Shown here one piece after another: positions 1-61,440 of a stretch of 64,000 nt of DNA. The stretch is taken from NCBI RefSeq assembly GCF_964019385.1, contig NC_088646.1, positions 42,033,908 through 42,097,907 on the forward strand, given 5' to 3'. This stretch comes from Sycon ciliatum. Lineage: Eukaryota > Porifera > Calcarea > Leucosolenida > Sycettidae. The notes under the pieces are model-generated. The model ran no database searches and had not been told where the DNA came from. It saw only the letters and a list, made by a program, of their open reading frames with translations. Numbering within the stretch: position 1 is the stretch's first letter; each line of letters begins with the position of its first letter. The position numbers were made by a program, and so were the translations under genes.

Positions 1-187
1 TGACGTTCCACACCTAACTTGCAATCATCTCTAGCACATCTTGGATGCGCACCCCAACAGCGTTCCAACTTGGAAGCTTCTAAGTTATAGAAATAACGTA
101 AGGACGTCAGTAATGTTGGTCAGTGTCGTGCAATGTTATTGCATGAGCTGATTGTAAAGTACCTGCAGTGGTGTTACTGGATATTAT

Positions 188-6717: not shown

Positions 6718-6900
6718 GGTGCATACAAGGTGTTCACCAGCACGCGCAACAGTTCCTTTATCGTCCGCGACGTCCAAATTTGTCACACTGACAGCACTGA
6801 CACTCGAACTTTGATCAGTCTGCTCACAACCAGCACTACCACGTTGCTGTTTTTGGACTGTATTTCCACGACCACGACGACTTTTCCGGGGCATCCACGT

Positions 6901-6914
6901 GGGTTTCGGTACCA
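6901..6914 (-). promoter_or_regulatory. gypsy-1 primer-binding site (tRNA-Phe)
   Basis: Four bases inside the 5' LTR on the minus strand, TGGTACCGAAACCC complements the 3' end of metazoan tRNA-Phe including CCA, with one mismatch (A for G). The gypsy-2 site has the matched base. Confidence 0.8.
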
Positions 6915-6918
6915 AATC

Positions 6919-7331
6919 TGTAATCGAATTCCTTTCTACTTTAGGTCGGACCCTAGAGCACTACCAATTCCGTCTGTAGGCTCCCTCGATCCCTCACGAC
7001 CACACACTCAAGACCCAAATACGGCTTGTTTACAGGAATTAGTCTAAAAGGAGAGTAAAAAGATCCACAAAAGCCAGCCTGATGCCGCGAGGTTCATGCC
7101 CTCACGCGCATCAAAGAACCATAGCAAAAATGGCGCACAGCATGATCAGATCACATGATCATGCTCTGATCAGCGATTCAAAGCGAGTCAACATATGATA
7201 ACTAAATTATTGGAATCTTTCGAAAAACTATGATGTCAAAACATCAGTACATTTAGAGAATTATTTGAACAAGATCGAAGGAGAAGATTGATTACTTTAT
7301 AATGAACTGCAAATCATGCAATTCCATTACA
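6919..7331 (-). repeat. gypsy-1 5' LTR
   Basis: 413 bp, the promoter-side LTR of the minus-strand element, matching 1832-2244. It is followed at 7332 by the GCTC target duplication and the resumed BEL-1 LTR. Confidence 0.93.
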
Positions 7332-7919: not shown

Positions 7920-7947
7920 GTCGTTAGGTTAGGATCCTCGCCTGAGA

Positions 7948-10494
7948 ATGGCATCCTCGGAGGAATGCCAGGATTTGGAGCGTGAGATCGAGCTCCTGAA
8001 GCTGCGGAAGTCGGCAGCGAAGACGCAGCTTACGAATGCGAGGCGTGGGCTGTTGGTCTTGGTAGATGTCGACACGCGACCTGTGCCGGACAAGGCAACG
8101 GTACTGAAAGCAGTTTCCTTGCTGCAAGGAGCCATGGACGAACTTGCAGGAGTCACCAGGACCCTGGCGAGTTATGTTCAGCAGACCCCAGACTGTCTGG
8201 GAGAATTCCGCAAGTTATCTGAGGATGCGGAGCAAACAGAAGAGAAGTATACGTCCGCGATGGAACGAAGTGCGGACTTCTGTCGGCAATACAGCAGTTT
8301 TGTCACGCCCAATACACGTTTTGGAAGTCCGTCCAGAAAAACTCAAATCTACAAACTGCGAGCTTACCTGGATAGGCACACTGCTCTTGTCGATGAGACC
8401 AGCGCTGATGAACGCGATGAACATGCTAGTGGAGCACGGGAATTTGAGTACGGAGTGGAGTCGCTAGCGCTGCAGACAGATAGTAGTAGTACTGTGGAGC
8501 ACACAGCGATCAGAGAAGCTGGTGCTCAGGCCGGTGCCAGTGAAGTAAAAGTTAGAGCAGACGTAGGGGGCCTCAGTCTCGGAGACAGAGCGCTTCAGTC
8601 CAGCACTAGCATTAGATCTGCTAGTACTTCTGCCACTAACACTAGTAACAGTACTAGTTCTACTTCTAGTACATGTACCAGCACCACTGCAGGGTTGTCA
8701 CCTGCAACCACAAACAACCTGTCACCAGCACAGGCCAGTGTGACAAGCATTAGTTTCACAAGTACAGGTGCCAGTTTCAGTGCTAACTACTTGGCAGCAT
8801 CCAGTGCACCACCACCAGGTTACCTGCAGACCAGGCCAGTGATAGGTATGGGAAGCACTGTGACAGTCAGCGCTGCCACTGGCACCAAGACTAGCACTCG
8901 CAGCAGCAGGCATGCACCAGCAGTGTCTACTACAAGTGCAACTGTGCATACCACTCTGCCAGTGTCTGCGATGAGCTTGCCTCCAACAGCCAAGACCAGA
9001 GTAGGCCAGACTGCCACTCAACCTATAACTCTGCAATCTTCCGCACCTAATAGTATGTTTCAGCCGTCGACACAGCAGCAATTGTATTTGCCGACGTCTC
9101 AATCGCAGCAGCATTCATTGCAGATACCACAGCCACAGTATGCATCACAGGTCATGCAGCAGCAGTGTATTCCGCCACAGCAGCAGTCTACCGTACAAGC
9201 GACTCAGCCGCAGTACGCACCGTTGTCAGTACAGCAGCCAGCACAGCAACAGTATTCTAATTCGGCGCCGCAATACCAGTATTCGGCACAGTCGTATACA
9301 CCACAGCCGTCACAGCCGTATACGCCACAGTACACACAGTCATACACACCGCAGTATACTCAGCAACAGTCCACACCACAAGCCTTACCTACACTGTATC
9401 CTAGTCCGTATTCAGCGCCCACGTTGCCGTACACTCAGGCATCTCTCCCGCCGCTATATCCACCACCACAGTCAGGGTATAGTTCACAGGTGCATGTCCA
9501 ACAGCCATCATCAGATATCACTAAGAATCTGAAGAAGGTGTCAATCCCAACATTCAGCGGCAATAAGCGCGAGTACGACCGATGGAAAGCAGCGTTCGTA
9601 GTATGTGTCGACAAACAGCCGCTCTCGAAAGAGATGAAGTTACTGCAGTTGCGGCAGTATTTGAGTGATGAGGCACTGAAAGTTGTTGAGAGTCTTGGAT
9701 TCTCACCGTCTTCGTACGACGCTGCGCTACGCCGGCTCGAACAACGCTACGGTGGACAACGAAGACAAATCGCTGTACACGTGGAAGAACTAGAGGAGTT
9801 CAACCAGATACGAACCGCAAAGGCAGCAGATCTGGAAAGGTTTGCTGACCTCCTAGAAGTCGCCATCGTACAAATGACGGACGCCGGATTGCAGTCCGAG
9901 CTCGGCATTGGCACAATGTACACAAGGCTGCAGCAGAAATTGGCCACACCAATTCTCACACAGTATCACCGTTGGGTGCTGGAAAACTCCAAGCACGAAT
10001 CCGTGAGAACACTACAAGAGTGGGTGAACCGAGAGGCAGCCATCATCGCTACAGCGACAGAGACAGTGGACGGCGTCAGCGGCAGTGGCAGCAACAGCAG
10101 TAGCAGCACCGGAAGCAGAAATAGCAGCAACAGCAGTAGCAGCACCGGAAGCAGAAATAGCAGTAACGCGCAAGCTGGCACACGACGGACCCATCTGGCA
10201 ACCGACAAGAAGGCCAAATCAACAGCTACATGCGCTCTTTGCGAAGAGAGCCATGCAATTTGGAACTGCCAACAGTTCAAGACCGCTGAGCCATCCAAGC
10301 GTTGGGTACATGCTAAACGTCTCAACCTTTGCTATCGTTGCCTCGGCACAGGCCACCGTGGGAACGATTGCACCAGGAGCCGAACATGTAATGTGAACGG
10401 TTGCAAGGACACACACAACTACCTCCTGCACAAACCAACAACAACACCTGGTGGATGCGACAAGGAGAAGCCGTCTGAGAAACAAACCAGATGA
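7948..10494 (+). CDS. BEL-1 Gag-like protein
   Basis: 848 residues from an ATG 29 bases past the primer-binding site. The first 40 residues form a charged helix, probably coiled coil. About residues 190-510 are low-complexity Ser/Thr/Gln/Pro. A Pao-type Gag domain (DUF1759-like, starting near IPTFSGNKREYDRWK) occupies about 530-700, and a Ser/Asn/Gly linker follows. A cysteine-rich zinc-knuckle region lies near 755-830 (CALCEESHAIWNC, then CYRCLGTGHRGNDC). It ends with TGA at 10492-10494 while Pol is open one frame over. The related BEL-2 has Gag and protease in one frame, so this is either a frameshift mutation or a recoding site. Confidence 0.9.
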   Translation: MASSEECQDLEREIELLKLRKSAAKTQLTNARRGLLVLVDVDTRPVPDKATVLKAVSLLQGAMDELAGVTRTLASYVQQTPDCLGEFRKLSEDAEQTEEKYTSAMERSADFCRQYSSFVTPNTRFGSPSRKTQIYKLRAYLDRHTALVDETSADERDEHASGAREFEYGVESLALQTDSSSTVEHTAIREAGAQAGASEVKVRADVGGLSLGDRALQSSTSIRSASTSATNTSNSTSSTSSTCTSTTAGLSPATTNNLSPAQASVTSISFTSTGASFSANYLAASSAPPPGYLQTRPVIGMGSTVTVSAATGTKTSTRSSRHAPAVSTTSATVHTTLPVSAMSLPPTAKTRVGQTATQPITLQSSAPNSMFQPSTQQQLYLPTSQSQQHSLQIPQPQYASQVMQQQCIPPQQQSTVQATQPQYAPLSVQQPAQQQYSNSAPQYQYSAQSYTPQPSQPYTPQYTQSYTPQYTQQQSTPQALPTLYPSPYSAPTLPYTQASLPPLYPPPQSGYSSQVHVQQPSSDITKNLKKVSIPTFSGNKREYDRWKAAFVVCVDKQPLSKEMKLLQLRQYLSDEALKVVESLGFSPSSYDAALRRLEQRYGGQRRQIAVHVEELEEFNQIRTAKAADLERFADLLEVAIVQMTDAGLQSELGIGTMYTRLQQKLATPILTQYHRWVLENSKHESVRTLQEWVNREAAIIATATETVDGVSGSGSNSSSSTGSRNSSNSSSSTGSRNSSNAQAGTRRTHLATDKKAKSTATCALCEESHAIWNCQQFKTAEPSKRWVHAKRLNLCYRCLGTGHRGNDCTRSRTCNVNGCKDTHNYLLHKPTTTPGGCDKEKPSEKQTR

Positions 10495-13400
10495 ACGAAG
10501 TCATCTAGCAGCCGCGACACTTCAGACTAGACGGCATAAAGAGTCTGTCTCGCTACGTACTGTACCCGTGATTGTGCGAGCTAACGGCAAGTCCGTCGAA
10601 ATCAACGCTCTGCTCGACGACGGGAGCACGAAGACCTACGTCAATGAGGTATTGGCTAAAGAGCTCGGCTTGCAGGGTAAACGGCGAGAAGTTCGGGTAG
10701 CCGTCCTGAGCGGCACCGTAGAGACGTTCACCAGCATGCCAGTCCAGTTTGAGCTTGAGAGCACCGACACTACAGTGAAGCTCAAGATGGAAGCTGACAC
10801 GATAACTGATGTAGTGGGAGATGCCAGAGCCGTCAATTGGCGGAACAAGAAGCGAGCGTGGCAGCATTTAGCTAATCTCGAATTTCCACCGCTTGGCCGC
10901 AAACCTACCATTGATCTCCTGATTGGCCTGGACTACGCCGAGCTTCACAAGTCCGTCAAAGACATCGCCGGCCAACGTGGCGAGCCCATTGCCCGCCTGA
11001 CACCACTCGGATGGACCTGTGTTGGGTCAACGGACAGTGAGACCCTCCCACGCACCCTGTTGACACGCCAGGTAGATGATCTGGGCACTCAAATGAAACG
11101 GTTCTGGGAAGTCGAGGAGGTACCAGCAGCAATGGTAGCCGAGTCGCAACGCACTGCTGACGAGAAGGCAGCACAGGACATCGTCAGCGCTGGGCTCACC
11201 AAGTCGGACGACAAGTACACGGTTCCGTTACCGTGGAAAGGCAACCGAGCCGAGCTACCAGACAACGCCATCATGGCGGAGAAACGGCTCAGAAATACAG
11301 AGCACCGGTTGAAGAAGGACACAGCAGTCGGCGAAGCATACAGCAACGTAATTGAGTCATACGTGAAGAAGGGCTACGTTCGCAAGGTGCCACCCACGGA
11401 AGTCAGCACAACACGATGGTTACTTCCACACTTTCCCGTCCTAAGACCGGACAAGAGCACAACGAAGCTGCGGATAGTGTTTGACGCGGCGGCACGCTGC
11501 CAAGGTGACTCACTAAATGAACACCTCCACGCGGGCCCGAAGCTGCAACGCAGTCTCTTTGATGTTCTCCTTCGCTTTCGGCAGCACCCAGTCGCCATCG
11601 TATGCGACATATCAGAAATGTACCTGCAAGTGAAGGTAGCACCAGCCGATCGTCCCTGCCTACGTTTCCTGTGGCGAAATCTCGACACCAGTAAGCCACC
11701 CGATACGTATGAATTTGAGAGAGTTGTGTTCGGCCTCTGCGTGTCACCGTTTCTGGCACAATTTGTTGCGCAGGAACACGCTAGACGACACCGAGAAGAA
11801 AGCCCCCGAGCAGCCGAGTCCATACTTGACTCCACCTACATGGACGATACGCTGGATTCGGTGGAAACTGTAGCAGACGGCAAGAAGCTGTACCACGATC
11901 TGTCAGCGATGTGGGCTGGAGCCGGCATGAGCGCACGCAAGTGGCTGTCGAATGCACCGGAAGTGCTCGAAGCCATCCCAGCAGAGCCACGAGCAGCCGA
12001 AATCAATCTGGAGTCTGGGGAGCTACCGGCGGTTAAAGCTCTCGGCATTCTCTGGAAAGCAGCCGAAGACGTGTTCTCGTTCCGTCCGGCAACCTCAAGT
12101 GAAACAATCAGCACGAAGCGCCAGTTTCTGCAGCGCATCAGTCAGCTCTTCGACCCGCTAGGCCTGATTGCACCAGTAGTTGTGCAGGGCAAGATCATTA
12201 TGCAGGACATATGGACGTCCGGCACAAACTGGGACGAAGAACTGAATCCGCTACTGAAAGCCTCAGCAACCAAGTGGTTTCAGCAACTACAGCAACTCGT
12301 GTCAATCAGAGTCCCAAGATGCCTCAGCTTGACTAACAGCCAGCAGCAGCTGCATGTGTTTGCAGATGCATCCAGTCTCGCTTACGGCGCAGCCGTATAC
12401 ATGCGCAGCCAGGATAGCAGTGATGTCGCGGCTCGGTTCGTGGCAGCAAAGAGTCGCGTCGCTCCGCTGCAAGCGATCAGCATTCCTCGGCTCGAGTTGA
12501 TGGCTGCAGTAACCGCAGCAGAACTCGGATCTGCAGTTGCTTCAGCGACACAGCTACAGCTGCAGAATGCAGTCTTCTGGACTGATTCCATGGATGTATT
12601 CCATTGGGTCCGGCAACCCAGTCGGCAATACAAGCCATTCATCGCACATCGGATCGGCTACATCCAGACGCTAACTCGACCTGGGCAGTGGCGCTATGTC
12701 CCGACAGCGCTCAATCCAGCAGATCTCGTGTCCCGAGGCGCAACGGTAACGAACCTCGCGGAGAGCAGCTTGTGGTGGGAAGGTCCTGCCTTTCTCCTGC
12801 AGCCATCTACTGAGTGGCCACAACCAGCAGCTACCACGACAGCATCGCCAACAGCTGCTGCAGAAGTCCGCAAGACAGCAGCGCTTCCGTCAACATTTGC
12901 CAGTGTAACCACATCAAACACCGACACCATGTGGCGATTAACCCCAGAGCGTTATTCAGATTTTCAGCGTCTCGTACGAATAACAGGATTGGTGTTAAGC
13001 TTCATCAGTAATGTGAGCAGTAATCAGCGCGCCACGGGGGAGCTGACAGTCTCAGAGCTTCAAGACGCTGAGCGTCTGTTGTTCAAGGGCGCACAAGCAG
13101 AAGCCTTTGGACAAGAGCTGCAGGCGCTAGCAAATGGCAAGGCCCTTCCAGCTAGTTCAGTTCTCAGCAAGCTAAGTCCCAGAGTCGACGAAGATGGTCT
13201 GTTACGTTGCGACGGTCGAACGAAGTACGCAGAGTGGCTACCGTACGACGTACGTTACCCAGTTATTCTGCCACGACACCACCATATCACGAAGTTAGTG
13301 GTTAAGCATCACCACGAATTGCAGCAGCACGGCGGTACCAACCAGACACTTTCATCGGTATGCGAGAGATTCTGGATAGTGGCTGCTCGAGAGGTGATAC

Positions 13401-14407
13401 GGGAGTGGGAACACGAATGTGCGCGGTGCATACGCACGAGGGCGAAGCCAGCTGAGCAAGTGATGGCACCCCTTCCAAAGAGTCGTCTGGAGCCACCACT
13501 TCGAGCATTTGCTAAGACAGCCGTGGACTTTGCTGGGCCGTATATCACAATCCAAGGCCGTGGAAGAGCACGTCAGAAGCAATACGTGTGCCTCTTCACC
13601 TGTCTGTTAAGTCGTGCAGTTCATCTGGAGCTTGCGTATGGGCTTGATACTGATTCATTCCTGCGCGCATTCTCACGTTTTGCCCATCGCCGTGGACTAC
13701 CAGTGCAAGTTCTGTCGGACAATGGAACGAACTTTATCGGCGCTAATCGGGAGCTGCGAGAGCTGGTCGATGCGCTCGACAAAGATGCCATCCAGCGGTC
13801 AGCAGCAAACCGCAAGATGGACTGGTCATTCAACCCACCACTCGCCCCGCATTTCGGCGGAGCGCACGAAGCCATGATCAAGTCAGCGAAAAGAGCAACT
13901 GCCAAGATCCTAGGGAACGCAGACATTACAGATGAAGAGTTGATGACTGCCTTCACAGGTGCGGAAGCCCTACTCAACTCGCGCCCACTGACCTTCCAAA
14001 GCGCCAACCCTGCAGATGTGAGTCCCTTGACACCCAACCACTTCCTGATTGGGCAAGCCGGTGGTCAGTATGCACCCGAGTCAGTGGACACTCAGCCATT
14101 TCACCCGAGGAACCGGTGGCGTCGTATCCAAGAGCTGCTGCAGCACTTCTGGCAGCGTTGGCTGACAGAATGGGTTCCGGCATTGAATCAGCGCCGGAAG
14201 TGGCTTGCCGAGCGTAAGGACGTCAGCTGTGACGACGTTGTCCTAGTCATCCAACCTGATTCCCCACGTGGTCAATGGCCATTGGGTCGAGTCACTCAGA
14301 CCTTCCCGGGCGCTGACGGAAAGGTACGCGTCGTCGAAGTGCAGGTCGCCGGTAAGCGAATGACCCGACCAATTACGAAGGTATGCCCTCTAGAGTTTGT
14401 AGATTGA
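10451..14407 (+). CDS. BEL-1 Pol polyprotein (protease, RT, RNase H, integrase)
   Basis: 1318 codons from a GTG. There is no ATG upstream of the protease, so expression probably depends on shifting from Gag; this frame is open from 10397 and is +1 relative to Gag. Domains: protease with LLDDGSTKTYV near residue 55; Pao-type reverse transcriptase with YMDD at 463-466; RNase H-like region (ADASSLAYG); integrase zinc finger; an integrase core with VDFAGPY, SDNGTNF and the catalytic Glu in HFGGAHE; and a C-terminal DUF5641-like segment ending in TGA. No internal stops. Domain order and the Pao RT assign it to BEL/Pao. Whether it is still active depends on how the Gag/Pol junction is decoded. Confidence 0.92.
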   Translation: MDATRRSRLRNKPDERSHLAAATLQTRRHKESVSLRTVPVIVRANGKSVEINALLDDGSTKTYVNEVLAKELGLQGKRREVRVAVLSGTVETFTSMPVQFELESTDTTVKLKMEADTITDVVGDARAVNWRNKKRAWQHLANLEFPPLGRKPTIDLLIGLDYAELHKSVKDIAGQRGEPIARLTPLGWTCVGSTDSETLPRTLLTRQVDDLGTQMKRFWEVEEVPAAMVAESQRTADEKAAQDIVSAGLTKSDDKYTVPLPWKGNRAELPDNAIMAEKRLRNTEHRLKKDTAVGEAYSNVIESYVKKGYVRKVPPTEVSTTRWLLPHFPVLRPDKSTTKLRIVFDAAARCQGDSLNEHLHAGPKLQRSLFDVLLRFRQHPVAIVCDISEMYLQVKVAPADRPCLRFLWRNLDTSKPPDTYEFERVVFGLCVSPFLAQFVAQEHARRHREESPRAAESILDSTYMDDTLDSVETVADGKKLYHDLSAMWAGAGMSARKWLSNAPEVLEAIPAEPRAAEINLESGELPAVKALGILWKAAEDVFSFRPATSSETISTKRQFLQRISQLFDPLGLIAPVVVQGKIIMQDIWTSGTNWDEELNPLLKASATKWFQQLQQLVSIRVPRCLSLTNSQQQLHVFADASSLAYGAAVYMRSQDSSDVAARFVAAKSRVAPLQAISIPRLELMAAVTAAELGSAVASATQLQLQNAVFWTDSMDVFHWVRQPSRQYKPFIAHRIGYIQTLTRPGQWRYVPTALNPADLVSRGATVTNLAESSLWWEGPAFLLQPSTEWPQPAATTTASPTAAAEVRKTAALPSTFASVTTSNTDTMWRLTPERYSDFQRLVRITGLVLSFISNVSSNQRATGELTVSELQDAERLLFKGAQAEAFGQELQALANGKALPASSVLSKLSPRVDEDGLLRCDGRTKYAEWLPYDVRYPVILPRHHHITKLVVKHHHELQQHGGTNQTLSSVCERFWIVAAREVIREWEHECARCIRTRAKPAEQVMAPLPKSRLEPPLRAFAKTAVDFAGPYITIQGRGRARQKQYVCLFTCLLSRAVHLELAYGLDTDSFLRAFSRFAHRRGLPVQVLSDNGTNFIGANRELRELVDALDKDAIQRSAANRKMDWSFNPPLAPHFGGAHEAMIKSAKRATAKILGNADITDEELMTAFTGAEALLNSRPLTFQSANPADVSPLTPNHFLIGQAGGQYAPESVDTQPFHPRNRWRRIQELLQHFWQRWLTEWVPALNQRRKWLAERKDVSCDDVVLVIQPDSPRGQWPLGRVTQTFPGADGKVRVVEVQVAGKRMTRPITKVCPLEFVD

Positions 14408-14468: not shown

Positions 14469-14668
14469 NNNNNNNNNNNNNNNNNNNNNNNNNNNNNNNN
14501 NNNNNNNNNNNNNNNNNNNNNNNNNNNNNNNNNNNNNNNNNNNNNNNNNNNNNNNNNNNNNNNNNNNNNNNNNNNNNNNNNNNNNNNNNNNNNNNNNNNN
14601 NNNNNNNNNNNNNNNNNNNNNNNNNNNNNNNNNNNNNNNNNNNNNNNNNNNNNNNNNNNNNNNNNNNN
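14469..14668. other. Assembly gap (200 N)
   Basis: A run of 200 N of conventional length; the true size is unknown. It replaces the rest of the BEL-1 3' LTR and the start of the ribozyme-bearing mosaic. Confidence 1.

Positions 14669-14674: not shown

Positions 14675-14703
<29 letters not shown>
14675..14703. repeat. (TA)n tract, first of the module junctions
   Basis: Pure TA repeat. Similar tracts lie at 14862-14875, 15035-15052, 17925-17948, 18162-18172, 18393-18405 and 18763-18784. Each marks a boundary between distinct sequence modules. Confidence 0.9.
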
Positions 14704-14706
<3 letters not shown>

Positions 14707-14768
14707 CTGGTTAGAGGGAAAGAGACAAACGGGAAAAGTCTGAAGAAAAAATTGACTGTCACCACCAG

Positions 14769-14845
14769 GACTCGAACAAGGGACCCTCGCTTGTAGCCAG
14801 CGATGCTCTAACCACTGAGCTATGGTGTAGTCGTCATCCAAGCAG
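14769..14845 (-). repeat. tRNA-related sequence (SINE head or tRNA pseudogene)
   Basis: On the minus strand the sequence has a D-arm-like A box (AGCTCAGTGGTTAGAGC), a 5-bp anticodon-like stem (TCGCT/AGCGA) and a B-box-like GTTCGAGTCC. The T stem does not pair properly, the anticodon loop lacks T at position 33, and the acceptor is poorly matched. It is therefore not a functional tRNA. A tRNA-derived SINE head is the likelier reading. Confidence 0.5.
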
Positions 14846-14875
14846 AGACCGTTCAACGTTTTATATATATATATA

Positions 14876-15036
14876 CTCAATCTGCGGACAGCATGCTGTT
14901 TCGTTCTTTTTGAACTCATCAGCGCAGCACAGAGGAAATGAGGCCGAACCTGATAGCAATGGAAATAAAAATTTCCAATCAGGCCCGAACGTACCTTGCC
15001 AGAGTGCTCAAACTGACAAGTCAGTGAGCTCTGCAT
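14876..15036 (-). repeat. Ribozyme-bearing module X, copy 1 (truncated)
   Basis: About 161 bp bounded by (TA)n tracts, shared with 17949-18161, 18405-18536 and 18552-18762. It holds a hammerhead on the minus strand and next to it a hairpin-forming stretch (TGGAAAT-AAAA-ATTTCCA inside CCTGAT/ATCAGG arms). It also carries the motif GAGTGCTC, a recurrent TTGAGCACTCT-type sequence in this region. Confidence 0.8.
14882..14927 (-). ncRNA. Type I hammerhead ribozyme motif (module X copy 1)
   Basis: Read on the minus strand: stem I CTGCG/CGCAG, core CTGATGA, stem II GTTC-AAAAA-GAAC, core GAAA, a short stem III (ACAG/CTGT, 4-base loop), then cleavage-site C (complement of 14887) just before the 3' strand of stem I. 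All invariant core positions (CUGANGA, GAAA, UH) are present. Stem I is the open helix, so the topology is type I. Confidence 0.85.
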
Positions 15037-15195
15037 ATATATATATATATATCCTTGGTGAGGACCGCTTCCATTGTGTACTAGCTCCAGTGCACCCCAG
15101 CGCTGTTGAGCCCTCTTTGCGGTGGACGGGACCACTTCCCCCTGTGTGAAGGCTCTCTTTTATAGATTGAGCACTCTTTCTCAGATACCGCAGCT

Positions 15196-15546
15196 ATGGA
15201 CCCACCAAGACGGACGGACCTCGGCTATTCCCTCGGGAATATACCCATCCCATCAGCAGACTCCTACCGAAAGCGTCTGGTGGAGAAAGTGGAGAGTGTA
15301 ATACGCCGGATGAGGTGGAAGGCGTTCTTCTTTCTCAACGGCGAGACCAGAGCGCAGGAGACCGAGACATATGGTTTCCCAAGCCAGAAGACGCCACCGC
15401 CAGTGCCGCAGCTAAAGGCATTCGAAGACGTTACACTGCCTGCACCTAGCAGTAACTCTTCACTCTCCACACTTCACGCTTTCTCTTTTGTGCGCCTTGC
15501 TGTGTGGTTGTGTATTTCTTTAGTGGACCTGACAGCCCTGCTTTAG
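15196..15546 (+). CDS. 116-residue ORF of the 556-bp unit, copy 1 (retroelement N-terminal fragment)
   Basis: The ORF starts MDPPRRTDLGYSLGNIPIPS and includes a basic stretch RRMRWKAFFFL and the segment TYGFPSQKTPPPVPQL. From memory these resemble the region before the reverse transcriptase in multi-copy retroelement proteins of aquatic invertebrates, possibly Penelope-like; I cannot verify this. The last 34 residues or so, which include a hydrophobic stretch, look unrelated, as if the reading frame had been joined to other sequence. No enzymatic domain is present. Whether it is translated is unknown. The stop lies 8 bases before the hammerhead. Confidence 0.5.
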   Translation: MDPPRRTDLGYSLGNIPIPSADSYRKRLVEKVESVIRRMRWKAFFFLNGETRAQETETYGFPSQKTPPPVPQLKAFEDVTLPAPSSNSSLSTLHAFSFVRLAVWLCISLVDLTALL

Positions 15547-15554
15547 TTAGAAAA

Positions 15555-15597
15555 GTTGCCTGACGATTGAAAAACTCAAGAAACTCGGAGTAGCAAC
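15555..15597 (+). ncRNA. Type I hammerhead ribozyme motif, array unit 1
   Basis: Stem I GTTGC/GCAAC; core CTGACGA; stem II TTGA-AAAAC-TCAA; core GAAA; minimal stem III (ACT/AGT with a 3-base loop); cleavage-site A at 15592 followed by the 3' strand of stem I. The U-A pair closing stem II is weaker than the usual G-C. A very short stem III is known for retroelement hammerheads, which can act as dimers; a tandem array provides that. Confidence 0.82.
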
Positions 15598-15751
15598 GGA
15601 TTGTGTTTCCTTGGTGAGGACCGCTTCCATTGTGTACTAGCTCCAGTGCACCCCAGCGCTGTTGAGCCCTCTTTGCGGTGGACGGGACCACTTCCCCCTG
15701 TGTGAAGGCTCTCTTTTATAGATTGAGCACTCTTTCTCAGATACCGCAGCT

Positions 15752-16102
15752 ATGGACCCACCAAGACGGACGGACCTCGGCTATTCCCTCGGGAATATAC
15801 CCATCCCATCAGCAGACTCCTACCGAACGCGTCTGGTGGAGAAAGTGGAGAGTGTAATACGCCGGATGAGGTGGAAGGCGTTCTTCTTTCTCAACGGCGA
15901 GACCAGAGCGCAGGAGACCGAGACATATGGTTTCCCAAGCCAGAAGACGCCACCGCCAGTGCCGCAGCTAAAGGCATTCGAAGACGTTACACTGCCTGCA
16001 CCTAGCAGTAACTCTTCACTCTCCACACTTCACGCTTTCTCTTTTGTGCGCCTTGCTGTGTGGTTGTGTATTTCTTTAGTGGACCTGACAGCCCTGCTTT
16101 AG
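15752..16102 (+). CDS. 116-residue ORF of the 556-bp unit, copy 2
   Basis: Same as the ORF at 15196 except one substitution (Lys to Thr in the SYRKRLVEK segment). It lies inside the monomer delimited by the hammerheads of units 1 and 2. Confidence 0.45.
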   Translation: MDPPRRTDLGYSLGNIPIPSADSYRTRLVEKVESVIRRMRWKAFFFLNGETRAQETETYGFPSQKTPPPVPQLKAFEDVTLPAPSSNSSLSTLHAFSFVRLAVWLCISLVDLTALL

Positions 16103-16110
16103 TTAGAAAA

Positions 16111-16153
16111 GTTGCCTGACGATTGAAAAACTCAAGAAACTCGGAGTAGCAAC
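16111..16153 (+). ncRNA. Type I hammerhead ribozyme motif, array unit 2
   Basis: Identical in sequence to the motif at 15555-15597, exactly 556 bases downstream; predicted cleavage after 16148. Confidence 0.82.
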
Positions 16154-16307
16154 GGATTGTGTTTCCTTGGTGAGGACCGCTTCCATTGTGTACTAGCTCC
16201 AGTGCACCCCAGCGCTGTTGAGCCCTCTTTGCGGTGGACGGGACCACTTCCCCCTGTGTGAAGGCTCTCTTTTATAGATTGAGCACTCTTTCTCAGATAC
16301 CGCAGCT

Positions 16308-16658
16308 ATGGACCCACCAAGACGGACGGACCTCGGCTATTCCCTCGGGAATATACCCATCCCATCAGCAGACTCCTACCGAAAGCGTCTGGTGGAGAAA
16401 GTGGAGAGTGTAATACGCCGGATGAGGTGGAAGGCGTTCTTCTTTCTCAACGGCGAGACCAGAGCGCAGGAGACCGAGACATATGGTTTCCCAAGCCAGA
16501 AGACGCCACCGCCAGTGCCGCAGCTAAAGGCATTCGAAGACGTTACACTGCCTGCACCTAGCAGTAACTCTTCACTCTCCACACTTCACGCTTTCTCTTT
16601 TGTGCGCCTTGCTGTGTGGTTGTGTATTTCTTTAGTGGACCTGACAGCCCTGCTTTAG
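16308..16658 (+). CDS. 116-residue ORF of the 556-bp unit, copy 3
   Basis: Translation identical to the copy at 15196-15546. Confidence 0.45.
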   Translation: MDPPRRTDLGYSLGNIPIPSADSYRKRLVEKVESVIRRMRWKAFFFLNGETRAQETETYGFPSQKTPPPVPQLKAFEDVTLPAPSSNSSLSTLHAFSFVRLAVWLCISLVDLTALL

Positions 16659-16666
16659 TTAGAAAA

Positions 16667-16709
16667 GTTGCCTGACGATTGAAAAACTCAAGAAACTCGG
16701 AGTAGCAAC
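16667..16709 (+). ncRNA. Type I hammerhead ribozyme motif, array unit 3
   Basis: Identical to the unit 1 motif; predicted cleavage after 16704. Confidence 0.82.
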
Positions 16710-16863
16710 GGATTGTGTTTCCTTGGTGAGGACCGCTTCCATTGTGTACTAGCTCCAGTGCACCCCAGCGCTGTTGAGCCCTCTTTGCGGTGGACGGGAC
16801 CACTTCCCCCTGTGTGAAGGCTCTCTTTTATAGATTGAGCACTCTTTCTCAGATACCGCAGCT

Positions 16864-17214
16864 ATGGACCCACCAAGACGGACGGACCTCGGCTATTCCC
16901 TCGGGAATATACCCATCCCATCAGCAGACTCCTACCGAAAGCGTCTGGTGGAGAAAGTGGAGAGTGTAATACGCCGGATGAGGTGGAAGGCGTTCTTCTT
17001 TCTCAACGGCGAGACCAGAGCGCAGGAGACCGAGACATATGGTTTCCCAAGCCAGAAGACGCCACCGCCAGTGCCGCAGCTAAAGGCATTCGAAGACGTT
17101 ACACTGCCTGCACCTAGCAGTAACTCTTCACTCTCCACACTTCACGCTTTCTCTTTTGTGCGCCTTGCTGTGTGGTTGTGTATTTCTTTAGTGGACCTGA
17201 CAGCCCTGCTTTAG
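16864..17214 (+). CDS. 116-residue ORF of the 556-bp unit, copy 4
   Basis: Translation identical to the copy at 15196-15546. Confidence 0.45.
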   Translation: MDPPRRTDLGYSLGNIPIPSADSYRKRLVEKVESVIRRMRWKAFFFLNGETRAQETETYGFPSQKTPPPVPQLKAFEDVTLPAPSSNSSLSTLHAFSFVRLAVWLCISLVDLTALL

Positions 17215-17222
17215 TTAGAAAA

Positions 17223-17265
17223 GTTGCCTGACGATTGAAAAACTCAAGAAACTCGGAGTAGCAAC
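17223..17265 (+). ncRNA. Type I hammerhead ribozyme motif, array unit 4
   Basis: Identical to the unit 1 motif; predicted cleavage after 17260. Confidence 0.82.
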
Positions 17266-17419
17266 GGATTGTGTTTCCTTGGTGAGGACCGCTTCCATTG
17301 TGTACTAGCTCCAGTGCACCCCAGCGCTGTTGAGCCCTCTTTGCGGTGGACGGGACCACTTCCCCCTGTGTGAAGGCTCTCTTTTATAGATTGAGCACTC
17401 TTTCTCAGATACCGCAGCT

Positions 17420-17770
17420 ATGGACCCACCAAGACGGACGGACCTCGGCTATTCCCTCGGGAATATACCCATCCCATCAGCAGACTCCTACCGAAAGCGT
17501 CTGGTGGAGAAAGTGGAGAGTGTAATACGCCGGATGAGGTGGAAGGCGTTCTTCTTTCTCAACGGCGAGACCAGAGCGCAGGAGACCGAGACATATGGTT
17601 TCCCAAGCCAGAAGACGCCACCGCCAGTGCCGCAGCTAAAGGCATTCGAAGACGTTACACTGCCTGCACCTAGCAGTAACTCTTCACTCTCCACACTTCA
17701 CGCTTTCTCTTTTGTGCGCCTTGCTGTGTGGTTGTGTATTTCTTTAGTGGACCTGACAGCCCTGCTTTAG
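17420..17770 (+). CDS. 116-residue ORF of the 556-bp unit, copy 5
   Basis: Translation identical to the copy at 15196-15546. Confidence 0.45.
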   Translation: MDPPRRTDLGYSLGNIPIPSADSYRKRLVEKVESVIRRMRWKAFFFLNGETRAQETETYGFPSQKTPPPVPQLKAFEDVTLPAPSSNSSLSTLHAFSFVRLAVWLCISLVDLTALL

Positions 17771-17778
17771 TTAGAAAA

Positions 17779-17821
17779 GTTGCCTGACGATTGAAAAACT
17801 CAAGAAACTCGGAGTAGCAAC
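17779..17821 (+). ncRNA. Type I hammerhead ribozyme motif, array unit 5
   Basis: Identical to the unit 1 motif; predicted cleavage after 17816. It is followed by the 92-bp partial sixth unit and a (TA)n tract. Confidence 0.82.
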
Positions 17822-17948
17822 GGATTGTGTTTCCTTGGTGAGGACCGCTTCCATTGTGTACTAGCTCCAGTGCACCCCAGCGCTGTTGAGCCCTCTTTGC
17901 GGTGGACGGGACCACTTCCCCCTGTATATATATATATATATATATATA

Positions 17949-18161
17949 CTCAATCTGCGGACAGCATGCTGTTTCGTTCTTTTTGAACTCATCAGCGCAG
18001 CACAGAGAAAATGAGGCCGAACCTGATAGCAATGGAAATAAAAATTTCCAATCAGGCCCGAACGTACCTTGCTAGAGTGCTCAAACTGACAAGTCAGTGA
18101 GCTCTGCATAACGCAAACAGCAAAGGCACTACCCCACGCAAGAGTGCTCAACTGCTACAAG
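17949..18161 (-). repeat. Ribozyme-bearing module X, copy 2
   Basis: 213 bp between (TA)n tracts; the longest copy on this side. It forms an inverted repeat with copy 4 (18552-18762), so 17949-18762 could fold back on itself. Confidence 0.85.
17955..18000 (-). ncRNA. Type I hammerhead ribozyme motif (module X copy 2)
   Basis: Same sequence as 14882-14927: stem I CTGCG/CGCAG, CTGATGA, stem II GTTC/GAAC, GAAA, short stem III, cleavage-site C. Confidence 0.85.
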
Positions 18162-18206
18162 ATATATATATACACTCAGACACAAAGGATCTCCAAGTTT
18201 CTCACT

Positions 18207-18248
18207 GTTGCTACTCTGAGTTTCGTGCAAAAGCACTCTTCAGGCAAC
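18207..18248 (-). ncRNA. Type I hammerhead ribozyme motif (palindrome, minus arm)
   Basis: On the minus strand: stem I GTTGC/GCAAC, CTGAAGA, stem II GTGC-TTTT-GCAC, GAAA, minimal stem III (ACT/AGT, 3-base loop), cleavage-site A. Stem I and stem III match the array ribozyme but stem II differs fully while still pairing. Confidence 0.82.
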
Positions 18249-18251
18249 TAC

Positions 18252-18291
18252 TTGCCTGAAGAGTGCTTTTGCACGAAACTCAGAGTAGCAA
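18252..18291 (+). ncRNA. Type I hammerhead ribozyme motif (palindrome, plus arm)
   Basis: Same core as the minus arm on the other strand: CTGAAGA, stem II GTGC-TTTT-GCAC, GAAA, cleavage-site A. Stem I is 4 bp (TTGC/GCAA) because the palindrome centre truncates its 5' strand. Confidence 0.78.
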
Positions 18292-18404
18292 CAGTGAGAA
18301 ACTTGGAGATCCTTTGTGTCTGAGTGCATAACCCCGCTCTGTCTTAGGACATTGAGCACTTTTTGCCGACGCAAGAAATACTTCTATTGTTCTATATATA
18401 TATA

Positions 18405-18536
18405 TAGCACTCTGGCAAGGTACGTTCGGGCCTGATTGGAAATTTTTATTTCCATCGCTATCAGGTTCGGCCTCATTTCCTCTGTGCTGCGCTGACGAGT
18501 CCACAAAGGACGAAACAGTTCTGTCCGCAGATTGAG
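18405..18536 (+). repeat. Ribozyme-bearing module X, copy 3 (partial)
   Basis: About 132 bp that starts at a (TA)n tract and matches the 3' part of copy 4 in direct orientation, hammerhead included. Confidence 0.82.
18487..18530 (+). ncRNA. Type I hammerhead ribozyme motif (module X copy 3)
   Basis: Stem I CTGCG/CGCAG; CTGACGA; stem II GTCC-ACAAA-GGAC; GAAA; short stem III (ACAG/CTGT); cleavage after C 18525. Compared with copies 1 and 2, stem II changes from GTTC/GAAC to GTCC/GGAC, a compensatory change that preserves pairing. Confidence 0.87.
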
Positions 18537-18551
18537 TATTTCGCTCCTGCC

Positions 18552-18762
18552 CTTGTAGCAGTTGAGCACTCTTGCGTGGGGTAGTGCCTTTGCTGTTTGC
18601 GTTATGCAGAGCTCACTGACTTGTCAGTTTGAGCACTCTGGCAAGGTACGTTCGGGCCTGATTGGAAATTTTTATTTCCATCGCTATCAGGTTCGGCCTC
18701 ATTTCCTCTGTGCTGCGCTGACGAGTCCACAAAGGACGAAACAGTTCTGTCCGCAGATTGAG
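18552..18762 (+). repeat. Ribozyme-bearing module X, copy 4
   Basis: 211 bp, inverted relative to copy 2 (17949-18161), ending at the (TA)n tract that leads into R1 copy 2. Confidence 0.85.
18713..18756 (+). ncRNA. Type I hammerhead ribozyme motif (module X copy 4)
   Basis: Same as copy 3: CTGCG/CGCAG, CTGACGA, GTCC-ACAAA-GGAC, GAAA, short stem III, cleavage after C 18751. Confidence 0.87.
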
Positions 18763-18782
18763 TATATATATATATATATATA

Positions 18783-19517
18783 TAACGTAACCTGTAGCTC
18801 TTTGGTCCTCTTATTTTCTTATAAATTGGCTTCCCACTAGAGTGAAATACATATTATTATGTATGTACTTCGAAGTAATAATTATCGCAAGGCGTAGTGG
18901 GAACACGGTCCAATTAGGAGAGAGTGTGTGATAGCCAACCATGGCACATAATTAGGGGTTGTGAGGGGAAATAAGGGACAGAAGTGATAATAAACTCTGT
19001 GGGGAGGGCGAATGTCGGTAAAGTCAGTCAAGAGCAACGGAGATACCGTAGAATCCCGCGGATAAGCCCACCCGCGTATTAGCCCATGCTCACGCATAAG
19101 CCCAGGAAACGTTCGAACATCACAAGGCTTCGTCGTACAAGCCCATGGGCCTAATTTGTACCAAAAGTCCATAAATTATGGACTCTTGGTCGTACCATGT
19201 ACATGTAGGTAGTGCATGTAGTTTTTTGTTTGTTTGTTTGTACATTTCAACACAATCATCGGCTGTTTTCGTTTGAACAGTGGCTTTCAGCATTGCACTT
19301 CTCACTTCCTTGGTACTTTTCAATAGCACAATGTTGGTGTCAGCGTATAAGCCCATGCCCGCGTACAAGCCCATGTTCTTGTATAAGCCCACCGAAATGT
19401 CCTTGTGAAACAGATAAGCCCATGGGCTTATCCGCGGGATTCTACGGTATGAAGGATGTGAAGGATGTGAAGGATATGAAGGATATGAAGGGAGCGTGGA
19501 TAATGAGCCAGGGGCGT
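18783..19517. repeat. Dispersed repeat R1, copy 2
   Basis: Aligns along its length with 188-897, with small indels, and continues uninterrupted past the point where BEL-1 entered copy 1. No coding content is recognised. Confidence 0.8.
19046..19447. mobile_element. MITE with 25-bp TIRs and TA target duplication, copy 2
   Basis: 402 bp, same termini and internal ATAAGCCCA motifs as 445-845; TA at 19044-19045 and 19448-19449. Confidence 0.75.
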
Positions 19518-22404: not shown

Positions 22405-22551
22405 CCTTGGATTTGAGGATCGTTGGGTCGTTCGTGTTGTAGTGTTCACCTGTGTTGGTGCGTTTGTGGCAGTGGTCGGTGCCCGTGCTTGTTTCCCGCA
22501 AGCTGTTCTACTAGCGTTTAGTATCGTTATTCGTAGTGTGTTCTGTTCAGT

Positions 22552-25500
22552 ATGAGTCTCAAGCTGGACAATTTCCTTCGTCCCTTCAAGGGCAAGGGGG
22601 ACGATTTCAATGCATTTCGCTCGAAATTTGGTGTGTTGGCCAAAATATCAAAATGGACGTCGGATGACGACAAGATGAAACACCTTCCGCTCTTTCTGGA
22701 CGGCGACGCGTTTCTTGTGTATGATCGATTGTCGGACACCGACAAGGCAGATCCGGATGTTGTGTTCGGCAAGTTGTCATCTGCGTTCGCCGTGACGAAG
22801 TCGCAGGCATACGGCCTGTTTGTACAGCGTAAGCTGAAACCCGATGAGTCGGTGGACGCGTACGTCGCCGATCTGCAGCGGTTGCTAGGCCTGTCTGGTC
22901 ACAGCGCGACTGATGATGAGGATACTGTCGTGATAGAACAGTTCATCAGTGGGTTACCCGTAGAATTTATCCAGCCCCTGCGCATGGCCACTGCTGGGAA
23001 AAAGTTGAAAGTGTCCGAGTGCGTGGAGCAGGTACGTGCTCTACAAGCTACGCATGCTGATTGTACACGCAGTCCGATGGTGGTCGCCAGTGCTGCACCT
23101 GGAGGTAATGGAGGTGCGTCCCGCAGCGTATTTTGCCACCAGTGCCACGAGCCTGGACATATTCAGCGGAACTGTCCTCGCCGAAAGAGGCACCATGATC
23201 GGCATGGCGGTGGAGAACGAACATGCTTCTTCTGCGACAAGCCTGGCCATGTCAAGTCTACGTGCCCGGAGCGCAAAGCTTGGATGGCGGCTTCCGCTGG
23301 CAAATCTGCTGCCGGGGTGTCAAAAGCTGACAAGAAAGCCCCAGTCCTGTGCATTTCAAGTGCCTCTGGTCCTGGCACCCTCCCGAGAATGCATGCGGAC
23401 GTACGTCGTTGTGGTGTCAAGTGTAACTGGGAACGTGTCACCGCTGTTATTGACAGTGGGTCAACCCATACACTGATCTCTGCTAGCTGCACCTCAGTAC
23501 TGCCCGCCAACTGCCCGGTCGATCGCACGTCGAATGTGCTCGTTGCCTTGGATGGCCAACCATTGCCTGTCGTTGGGACTGTTCGCCTGACGCTGAAACG
23601 TACTGACGGCCCAGTCCATCTCTCACCAATCGAGGTTACAGCCACTGTCGTCAAGAGTTTGGATGCTGTGGATGCCTCCGTGCTAATCGGGACAGACCTC
23701 ATTGCTGCAGCTGGTGGTCTCAGCCTACAGTATGACAATGACAACTTATTGTGTGGTGTCCGTTTCGGTCAGGCCGTGACTGCAGCTGTTCCAGGTACTC
23801 CTCCGATGGTGCATCCTTCTCCGTATGTGTCCGTAAGTTCTGATGGTGATGACACTGTGTTGCATACGGATGATGGTGAGGCCAGATGGCGCGCGGACAA
23901 GCAGTACTGGGAGGTGAAATGGTCCTGGAAAGATGATGTTGCACCCAGCGAGCCTGTCGGCCATGGCATCGGCGAGTATTCTCGCTCCAAGCTGACACCA
24001 GACCAAGAGGGTCTTTTCCAGGCCGAGGTTCAGAAGTGGCTGGATAGTGATTTCCTCGTTCCCCATAATCGGGAACTTCATGGTGACCCTGTGGCTGTTC
24101 TACCCTTGCTGGCTCAAGTACAGGAGCACAAGGGCACCACACCGGTCAGACCGTGTCTGGACTATCGTCTCCTGAACCGCCGTCTTACTTCGCAGCCTGG
24201 TCGCGATGCTCCTGTGTGTGAGGAGGCCCTCCGACGCTGGCGAAGTGATGGCCGCCCTGAAGAGTACTGTTTGCTTGATATCCGCAAGGCGTATCTACAA
24301 GTTCGTGTCGCTCCGGACTTGCTGAAGTTCCAGACAGTGATGTGGAACGGCCGTGTCTACACTATGACTCGGATGGGCTTTGGCCTCAATGTCGCCCCGA
24401 AGCTGCTGACGATGATTGTCCAATGGGTCACGCGCGACTTTGCAGGCGTCGATAGTTACATCGACGATATCCGCACGCCCATTGCATGCCGTGATGCACT
24501 CGCTACTCGTTTAGCCGAATTTGGTCTCCCGACGAAACCTGCCGAGCCACTCATCACTGCTCGTGTTCTTGGTCTGCAGCTCGCTCAGGACGACAATGGC
24601 ATTGTTAACTGGTCGCGCCGCGCTGGTGTCGATCTACAGCTGCCTCGGCCTGCTACCAAGCGCTCGTTATTTAGCTGGTGTGGTCGTTTGACGGGCCATG
24701 TTCCTATCTGTAACTGGCTCCGTCCCGCTTGCAGCTTCATCAAGCGCCTGATTGGTGCGAGCACCGCCTGGGACGACCCGGTCCCCGATAATGTGTTGCG
24801 GCTCTGCACGGAGGTTGAAACCAAGCTGCAACAGCATGGTGACCCTGCACGTGGTCGGTGGTGGACGAGCCCTGACGGTGGTTCTGACTGTGCTGTGTAT
24901 GTCGATGCATCTGATGTTGGCCTGGGTGTAGTCGTGTCCGTTGATGGCCAAGTGATGGAAGATCGCTCGTGGCTACGTCCGAAAGACGACAAGCGACATG
25001 TCAATGTCGTTGAGCTGGAGGCTGCAATCAAGGGCCTTTCTCTCGCCGTGGCCTGGAAATTCTCTTCTGTCCGTCTGGTCACCGACTCGAAAACATCAGC
25101 TGCCTGGCTCCGTGATGTCGTCAACAATGTGCGCCGTGTGAAGACAAGCGGCCTGTATGATGTCCTGGTTCAACGCCGCCTGCAGATCATTGCTGACCTG
25201 ATTGTCAGCGCACAGCTCCGTGTCACCATCGAGTGGGTAGCATCTGCCGCCAACCCTGCTGACGTCCTGACTCGAGTCCCTGCTACGTGGATCCAGCTGA
25301 GCAAGAAGTTGACCGCTACTGCTGAAGCACCTGCCAGTGTTAGTGCTGCCGTGACAACTCCGGTTGCCACCATTGTTGGTCCTGTGCTGTTGACTGACAT
25401 TACTTCTGCTCAGAGTACTGACCAACTGATTCAGACTGTGATCACTCAACTCGAGCAGGATCTGCCTGTTGCTCGTGAGTACAGCAAGGTGAGACCCCAG

Positions 25501-41405: not shown

Positions 41406-41629
41406 AACACACCGAGAAAGTGTTACATATTGCAGTGTAAGTACAGAGGCAGAGAACTGAGGAGGATGTGTACAAAACAAGGCCGGTCGAGGTGGCTCGA
41501 AGCAGAGTGCTCAATGCACAAACGTGCAGAGCAGTACACACACACAACGGAGGCGAAAGGCTGTGTAGCTGTAATTTCAAGTTTCACACATTTCAGCGAT
41601 CATCGCCAGGAGCGTAGCTGGTCCCCCTT

Positions 41630-41701
<72 letters not shown>

Positions 41702-54384: not shown

Positions 54385-54391
54385 CGTCGGA

Positions 54392-54408
54392 TCCGGCTCG
54401 AAGGACCA
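54392..54408 (-). promoter_or_regulatory. BEL-2 primer-binding site (tRNA-Tyr)
   Basis: TGGTCCTTCGAGCCGGA on the minus strand, 17 bases exactly complementary to the 3' end of metazoan tRNA-Tyr with CCA, five bases from the LTR. Confidence 0.88.
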
Positions 54409-54413
54409 GAAAA

Positions 54414-54856
54414 TGTTCCAACTAAATGCACTGCAGCAATCAGTAAAGAACCTACATTACGAAAGGTACGAAGACTGTAAACTAAAACAACTAACTTCAA
54501 GAACATGAGAACAACGGAAGATATAGAAAACGAGCACGGCAGGACAGTGTGTAGATTACTAAACTATTCATGCTCGGATATGGTACGATGCACATAGAGA
54601 GTGTGCTCAGGTTACACACTCAGACATGCATGGTGACAACATGTGAATGCATAAGGCCGGGGCATAGAAAGGTCAAACACTGACCTGGATTGGACATCCG
54701 TAACAGTGGTCAGCTACGGCTAGGCTATAGCATACAATGCATGTAACAGCCATGAATGAGTCTCAGTCGACCTACCAAGCATGACCAGCACTAATGCACT
54801 GGACTACAACTATCAAAACAAAAGAAAGACCGGAATATTCTAGAACAAATCTAACA
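54414..54856 (-). repeat. BEL-2 5' LTR
   Basis: 443 bp, partner of 47616-48058. Confidence 0.93.
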
Positions 54857-61418: not shown

Positions 61419-61419
61419 T

Positions 61420-61435: not shown

Positions 61436-61440
61436 TCAAG

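What the first reader, a model, noticed from the sequence alone, without database searches (positions are those of the whole stretch)
14876..18762. Eleven type I hammerhead ribozyme motifs within 4 kb
Seen directly: CTGANGA ... GAAA cores with three pairing stems and a UH cleavage site at 14882-14927 (-), 17955-18000 (-), 18207-18248 (-), 18252-18291 (+), 18487-18530 (+), 18713-18756 (+), and five array copies from 15555-15597 to 17779-17821 (+). Stem I is the open helix in all (type I). Known: type I hammerheads with very short stem III occur in Penelope-like retroelements and in animal retrozymes, small non-autonomous elements that make circular RNAs. Inference: this mosaic is a ribozyme-bearing retroelement cluster, and its mix of three ribozyme variants in both orientations is unusual.
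Basis: partly seen in the sequence, partly recalled or inferred. Interest (0 to 1): 0.92.

Follow-up and report, generated by a model that had tools for sequence, protein, structure and literature searches.

The report
Penelope retroelements and their ribozyme parasites
Small self-cutting RNA elements and larger Penelope retroelements in this probably animal genome share a paired RNA hairpin just beside the points where their DNA copies end, which suggests that the small ones travel on the larger ones' copying machine.

Summary
In detail: a strict descriptor finds exactly 11 type I hammerhead (HHR) folds in the 64-kb window, at the stated places. They are not one element but separate insertions into a (TA)n tract, from three families.

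(A) The 556-bp array is an internally deleted Penelope-like element (PLE-1). Uninterrupted 704-aa tandem copies lie elsewhere in the same genome; A keeps the HHR and the first 235 nt of the ORF and lacks 2,071 bp.

(C) The palindrome is the inverted HHR-bearing end of a second family, PLE-2, with a PLE "tail" on one arm.

(B) A 226-bp retrozyme.

Sampled insertion 3' ends cluster at set points after the HHR cut: PLE-1 44 of 53 at +39..46 or +106..112, PLE-2 46 of 57 at +38/43 or +109, B 55 of 66 at +11..17. The commonest end points lie 3-6 nt before a hairpin GCUC-stem-loop-stem-UU-GAGC, usually two per element. Its inner stem pairs in 9 of 11 sites (re-pairing mean 1.8; none of 100,000 reach 9). 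The motif pair (2,901 genome matches, control 38) led to three new families, all three HHR-bearing.

Best reading: the hairpin is the PLE reverse-transcription start signal, and retrozymes carry it to be copied in trans. Cleavage, RNA circles and protein binding are untested.

The parts
14862..14875 (.). (TA)n run at the 3' end of B1; one of 7 TA runs >=10 bp in the window, all within 14675-18784
14876..15034 (-). B1, 5'-truncated copy of the 226-bp retrozyme; HHR 14882-14927, cut after 14887; 3' end ATTGAG|(TA)n
15052..17925 (+). A: mini-PLE-1 tandem array, 5.17 units of 556 bp, inserted in (TA)n; 3' end +109 nt after the last HHR cut, a point also used by full PLE-1 copies
15555..15597 (+). 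HHR of array unit 1 (cut after 15592); the same at 16111-16153, 16667-16709, 17223-17265, 17779-17821
15752..16102 (+). ORF in the unit (116 aa): its first 78 codons match the N-terminus of PLE-type proteins (best E 1.3e-27, 72%); repeated from 15196, 16308, 16864, 17420
15986..15987 (+). deletion junction GAAGACG|TTACACTG where 2,071 bp of PLE-1 (rest of the ORF and beyond) are missing; no shared bases at the joint
15640..15667 (+). hairpin 1 of unit (GCTC-stem-TT-GAGC, 6-bp inner stem), repeated each unit
15708..15728 (+). hairpin 2 of unit (3-bp inner stem) 6 nt 3' of the end point used by the array, repeated each unit
17949..18161 (-). B2, copy of the 226-bp retrozyme; HHR 17955-18000, cut after 17960
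18173..18247 (-). C left arm: PLE-2 end with HHR (cut after 18212), short arm without tail, ends at (TA)n
18252..18392 (+). C right arm: PLE-2 end with HHR (cut after 18287) plus tail 18327-18392, ends at (TA)n; hairpin 18336-18357
18407..18762 (+). B3, retrozyme, 1.6 units of 226 bp; HHRs cut after 18525 and 18751; hairpins 18543-18567 and 18611-18634
18763..18784 (.). (TA)n run at the 3' end of B3
41480..41630 (-). decayed PLE-3/PLE-4-like end (hairpin 41509-41532, HHR-like remnant) next to a (CA)n tract, found with the hairpin descriptor

Best explanation
The locus is a (TA)n tract hit repeatedly by one kind of machinery: the PLE protein cuts AT-rich repeats and reverse transcribes RNA from an internal start point onto the cut end. 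The start point is set by an RNA hairpin (GCUC, variable stem-loop, UU, GAGC, then usually ACUCU) 3-6 nt 3' of it; elements carry two such sites, about 60 nt apart, after the HHR. PLEs use both (one per strand), giving inverted ends with and without a tail. A is an internally deleted PLE that kept HHR, both hairpins and the ORF start and is copied in trans; the 226-bp retrozyme B keeps only HHR and hairpins and is copied in trans too. Because copying starts only ~13 nt after the retrozyme's own cut site, its template must be a circle (HHR cut plus ligation) or an uncut multimer. Shown by sequence: homology, deletion, end-point clusters, hairpin pairing. Inferred: protein recognition, trans copying, RNA circles.
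Against: No biochemistry, transcripts or circles were seen. The hairpin was noticed on the same 12 sites on which it was then tested. Two of the 11 hairpins lack the inner stem, and E's second site lacks GCTC; single folds beat inner shuffles only modestly (mean z -1.1). B's second hairpin has no cluster of ends before it. B is not confined to (TA)n. Loci were chosen by similarity to queries that themselves end near the end points, which could inflate the clusters; ends in TA tracts are ambiguous by a few nt. E's end was read by eye from one copy. In the Anolis PLE the start is in the ORF and not homologous to the target, unlike here. Pfam and NCBIfam see no RT or GIY-YIG domain in the PLE-1 protein or P0003.
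Confidence: 0.8

Rival explanations
1. Common descent only: retrozymes B and E are worn-down PLE ends, and the hairpin is an inherited feature with another role (promoter, RNA stability, ligation), not the reverse-transcription start signal.
For: HHR, hairpin 1 and hairpin 2 occur in the same order and near-equal spacing in PLEs and retrozymes. Mini-PLEs are plausible intermediates.
Against: Inner stems pair although their sequences differ between families, and the commonest insertion ends sit 3-6 nt from GCTC at the six points for which I have ends, one of them a single copy. Descent and the start-signal reading can both be true.
Confidence: 0.15
2. The arrays are ordinary satellite DNA spread by unequal crossing-over or gene conversion, with a chance or passenger ribozyme.
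For: The array units are nearly identical, and tandem arrays can grow that way.
Against: Clustered 3' ends, variable 5' ends, AT-rich or (TA)n flanks, target duplications of 7 bp or more in 7 of 30 B copies (null 0.8; one of the 7 is a TA run), and dispersed full PLE copies ending at the same points.
Confidence: 0.08
3. Retrozymes are moved by a LINE-type machinery; co-location with PLEs in (TA)n only reflects a shared taste for AT-rich DNA.
For: B copies also occur outside (TA)n, some with direct flanking repeats of 7-16 bp.
Against: B and E share the motif pair and spacing with four PLE families. No LINE was searched for, so this is not excluded.
Confidence: 0.1
4. The array is an assembly artefact.
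For: 200 N lie at 14469-14668, just outside the mosaic, and the units are near-identical.
Against: The deletion junction, a private base in one unit and ends in (TA)n, plus separate mini-PLE-2 arrays on other contigs.
Confidence: 0.03

Closest known systems
Animal non-LTR retrozymes (Cervera & de la Pena 2020, PMC7229834)
   Same: Element B: type I HHR, 226-bp tandem units, no ORF, more than one family in one genome, co-existence with PLEs; the paper proposes PLEs as movers.
   Different: The text I read (parts 1-4 of 6) gives no start signal or insertion end points. Unit A is larger (556 bp) and carries an ORF fragment, so it is not a retrozyme by that description.
Penelope-like elements: Anolis PAc (PMC11167929) and Adineta Pen (PMC3846280, passages)
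   Same: HHR (PAc), tandem copies, inverted pLTRs with an optional tail (Adineta), two internal start sites (PAc), AT-rich targets.
   Different: In PAc the start lies in the ORF in an AC-rich stem-loop, not homologous to the target; here the end points lie 5' of the ORF, read TGT/TGTA/TAT/TATA and precede a GCUC/GAGC hairpin.
Short non-autonomous Penelope elements (Heliconius, PMC6685494)
   Same: Non-autonomous PLE copies have been reported.
   Different: The two passages I saw describe no HHR, tandem unit or retained ORF start.
Telomerase (recalled)
   Same: PLE RT is regarded as a relative of TERT; TERT is among the top fold matches. An RNA structure next to the template would define where copying starts.
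   Different: Analogy only; no template-boundary function was tested.

Membership tests
Penelope-like element (PLE-1, the parent of A) | RT of the PLE/telomerase lineage | tested here: inconclusive
   A homologue's model (P0003, pLDDT 69) matches RTs; telomerase is tied with DGR RTs. The GLYRDDGL box is conserved in homologues and present in PLE-1, known as PLE-like from recall. No Pfam RT hit.
Penelope-like element (PLE-1, the parent of A) | C-terminal GIY-YIG endonuclease | tested here: inconclusive
   YIG..FK.RY.NH..SF and a CxC/CPLxGxC cluster conserved; motif names recalled, no profile hit, domain not folded and searched alone.
Penelope-like element (PLE-1, the parent of A) | Tandem copies with repeated ends (pLTR), inverted pLTR, tail on one arm | tested here: met
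   L009 is a tandem dimer; in the 13 fetched PLE-1 loci with two opposed ends (of 29) one ends at ref 201-208 and the other at 268-274 (my count); PLE-2 likewise in many loci.
Penelope-like element (PLE-1, the parent of A) | Type I HHR in the pLTR | tested here: met
   By sequence and descriptor only; not by Rfam.
Penelope-like element (unit A itself) | Own RT and endonuclease | tested here: not met
   Deleted; filed as a non-autonomous derivative.
Animal retrozyme (B) | Type I HHR in 150-450 bp tandem units without ORF | tested here: met
   226 bp; paired HHR.
Animal retrozyme (B) | Low GC (<50%) | tested here: not met
   50.4%; borderline.
Animal retrozyme (B) | Target duplications longer than 4 bp, when present | tested here: met
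   Duplications >=7 bp in 7 of 30 insertions, null 0.8.
Animal retrozyme (B) | Self-cleavage and abundant circular RNA | not testable with these tools
   No RNA data.
Animal retrozyme (A) | No ORF, 150-450 bp | tested here: not met
   556 bp with the PLE ORF start.

The most novel reading that the evidence does not exclude
A pair of RNA hairpins is the start code of PLE reverse transcriptase, and animal retrozymes are the end stage of PLE miniaturisation: PLE, then mini-PLE (HHR, hairpins, ORF start), then retrozyme (HHR, hairpins only), copied in trans from ribozyme-made RNA circles.
Probability: 0.5. Interest if true: 0.92.

Novelty: new variant of a known kind. Interest (0 to 1): 0.82.

Why it matters
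Which enzyme moves animal retrozymes is open: the authors who described them name PLEs as a strong candidate, on grounds of shared ribozymes, tandem copies and co-occurrence. Here is a concrete, searchable RNA signal beside the mapped end points of both, and mini-PLEs as possible intermediates. The question becomes directly testable with one purified protein and short RNAs. It also offers a reason for PLEs' two start sites and odd inverted ends.

Tried and rejected
Single element with mixed ribozymes: rejected, since the parts have their own (TA)n-flanked ends and their own genomic families.

Head-to-head ribozymes in C as a microRNA: the Rfam microRNA hits there come from the long near-perfect palindrome and stay below their cut-offs.

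Splicing as the origin of A's deletion: no GT-AG at the ends and no shared bases at the joint.

Circle structure as evidence: the A circle is no more stable than base shuffles (z -0.3); B is (z -3.2). Not used as proof.

Pfam/NCBIfam/PDB sequence searches for the PLE protein: nothing useful.

Viral contigs and genome-contig scans: no relatives. Organism: not identified; an animal is likely from a 7tm_2 fragment and the retroelements.

A first count of neighbouring HHR elements (15 of 44, 20 of 45) placed some ends by string match in repeats and counted the same family; one search replaces it.

A genome-wide count of GCTCN{8,24}TTGAGCACTCTC, meant as a further independent test of the inner stem, did not complete. 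As a smaller substitute I listed TTGAGCAC[TC] sites in the loci already held, mostly B and PLE copies.

Counts include simple-repeat arrays and the answer lists only the first places; I did not classify the 2,901. Of types new to me I fetched three, one place each; others were not looked at.

Rows left out: B insertions were measured in 26 of the 30 fetched B loci (window copies and overlapping or near-duplicate loci dropped), and the null there used flanks without element ends. E site 2 (no GCTC) is left out of the 11.

Not in print: judged only. PMC4209133 and PMC5785218, two key PLE-HHR papers by their titles, were not held. Seen of papers: PMC7229834 parts 1-4 of 6 and passages; PMC11167929 abstract and main text; PMC3846280, PMC7761336, PMC6685494, PMC8490949 passages; the others as search listings only.
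Full report
OBSERVATION. A strict descriptor finds 11 hammerhead folds in the 64-kb window, all those of the finding, and none in 60 simulated windows. Rfam's thresholds are not reached, though the B copies score 30-33 bits with E 1.7e-5 to 1.3e-4 when the region is searched alone; the A and C motifs are not listed at E 10. Thirty-six genomic copies of the B ribozyme keep the stems with two-sided changes, most clearly in stem II: C-G in 20 and U-A in 11 at one pair; the count of further pair types shows no excess over shuffles.

ANATOMY. The window has seven TA runs of 10 bp or more, all between 14675 and 18784, and they separate distinct insertions. From left to right: a tRNA-like piece; B1 (-); the A array (+); B2 (-); C, two arms head to head; B3 (+). 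The three window B copies end 3' at ATTGAG followed by (TA)n and differ at the 5' end.

UNIT A IS A DELETED PENELOPE-LIKE ELEMENT. The first 78 codons of an ORF in the 556-bp unit match proteins of up to 738 residues (13 proteins with E <= 1 of 50 candidates, best 1.3e-27 at 72%). These carry GLYRDDGL-like and, where complete, YIG..FK.RY.NH-like motifs (the meaning of the motifs is recalled), and an AlphaFold model of one (pLDDT 69) has an RT fold, telomerase tied with DGR RTs at the top. In the window's own 538-Mb genome the unit has 98 matches (40 of 210 candidates scored, a lower bound). I fetched 29 places. L009 holds two tandem copies of the full element with uninterrupted 704-aa ORFs. 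A equals this 2,629-bp unit without 2,071 bp (a 2-bp indel lies elsewhere); the joint is GAAGACG|TTACACTG with no shared bases.

MINI-PLEs RECUR. Family C (PLE-2, unit 2,589-2,590 bp, 54% identical to PLE-1 over the first 478 residues) has short tandem forms of 546 and 481 bp, about 99% identical to the full element, keeping 171 and 148 nt of the ORF. I did not establish an intact PLE-2 ORF: one copy has a stop at codon 318, another is open for the 481 codons held. The 546-bp form occurs at two near-identical places that may be one duplicated event. Two more PLE-1-like loci keep about 138 and 109 nt and share A's 3' breakpoint within a few bases. A keeps 235 nt. In the Anolis PLE the first 172 nt of the ORF were the minimum template (PMC11167929 main text).

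END POINTS. Measured from the HHR cut: PLE-1 ends 25 at +39..46 and 19 at +106..112 of 53; PLE-2 17 at +38/43 and 29 at +109 of 57; B 55 of 66 at +11..17. The array's own end is +109. In the 13 fetched PLE-1 loci with two opposed ends one arm is short and one long (my count), as also in many PLE-2 loci. This is the inverted pLTR with tail described for Adineta (PMC3846280 passages), tied to two start sites in Anolis. The downstream 20 nt are 75-80% AT (54% in random pieces of the same loci), TA-alternating in 14/53, 31/57 and 21/66 (0.7% of random pieces). A piece of another HHR family lies within 300 bp of 11 of 43 PLE-1 ends and 15 of 45 PLE-2 ends, this locus included.

THE HAIRPIN. The families share TTGAGC[A/C]CT downstream of the HHR: PLE-1 +70/+131, PLE-2 +65/+125, B +37/+104. 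In the window TTGAGCACT occurs 12 times, 11 in these elements on the HHR strand (expected 1.1). The motif is the 3' half of a hairpin: GCUC, inner stem, loop, inner stem, UU, GAGC. GCUC begins 3-6 nt after the commonest end in PLE-1 (both), PLE-2 (both) and B, and after the one E end that I read by eye; ends in TA tracts are ambiguous by a few nt. Of 12 sites in six families, 11 have GCTC and 9 of those an inner stem of at least 3 bp; re-pairing the arms among sites gives 1.8 on average and never 9 in 100,000 trials. The exceptions are PLE-2 site 2 and E site 1 (no 3-bp stem next to GCUC) and E site 2 (no GCTC). The pattern was noticed on these sites and then tested on them; single folds beat shuffles of their inner bases only modestly (mean z -1.1).

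PREDICTION TEST. TTGAGCACTN{45,66}TTGAGCACT has 2,901 matches in the genome against 38 for the reversed pattern. Of those listed, most look like B and some are simple repeats. I fetched one place each of three types new to me. All three fit: E is a tandem 237-bp retrozyme with a 6/4/5-bp HHR, motifs at +39/+104 and, by eye, a target duplication of at least 11 bp; F and G encode PLE N-termini (58% and 50% identical to PLE-1) with HHR-like cores whose cut lies 52 and 62 nt before the first motif. I assigned those two cores by eye; the descriptor missed them because stem II opens with a U.U pair. The hairpin descriptor gives 17 window hits, 16 in the mosaic (simulated mean 0.3). The other, at 41509-41532 (-), lies in a relic colinear with the PLE-3 end and similar to PLE-4 (scores 34 and 44, shuffle maxima 28 and 24).

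MECHANISM. Shown by sequence: homology, deletion, end clusters, AT-rich flanks, paired hairpins. Inferred: the PLE protein binds the hairpins, nicks AT-rich DNA such as (TA)n, and starts copying where the RNA reads UGUA, UGU, UAU or UAUA, able to pair with the nicked end. In Anolis the start is not homologous to the target, so this pairing is a difference. A linear self-cut retrozyme monomer would offer only about 13 nt upstream of the start; all 30 measured B insertions are longer and 19 exceed one unit, so the template was circular or multimeric. 15 of 30 measure 0.92-1.22 units, which fits one turn round a circle but also a dimer cut at its 5' HHR. Flanking duplications of 7 bp or more were found in 7 of 30 (null 0.8), one of them a TA run. 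B's second hairpin shows no end cluster, so its role there is open.

LIMITS. Loci came from similarity searches that score only the best candidates and whose queries end near the end points; one search was not classified in full; a further scan did not complete. No RNA or protein experiment. The species is unknown. Two key papers were not held.

Noticed in passing
window 14704-14861 (-): A tRNA-like sequence (ARAGORN 14757-14829, CTA anticodon; Rfam tRNA 28.4 bits, just under cut-off) also sits between two (TA) runs, perhaps a tRNA-derived SINE using the same target.
   Followed up: partly
window 41480-41630 (-): Decayed PLE-3/4-like end with hairpin beside a (CA)n tract.
   Followed up: yes
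L043, L049 and window 18173-18326: PLE-2 loci where both inverted arms start at about the same point, the base of HHR stem I, a few nt apart, as if cDNA folded back on itself there.
   Followed up: no
G000:C11:4.07-4.09 Mb (L009, L034, L042, L055-L058): Tandem PLE-1 with uninterrupted ORFs and tandem PLE-2 lie within about 20 kb of each other: a possible source cluster.
   Followed up: no
L075 1252-1742: Two B copies tail to tail across a short TA run, giving a palindromic joint.
   Followed up: no
window 2482-6960 (-), 7933-14407 (+), 22537-26745 (+), 48164-54456 (-), 61360-63420 (+): Long LTR-retrotransposon-like ORFs; Pfam was run on four (2482-6960, 7933-10491, 22537-26745, 61360-63420), which show gag, integrase or RT-type domains; the others look alike by eye.
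   Followed up: partly
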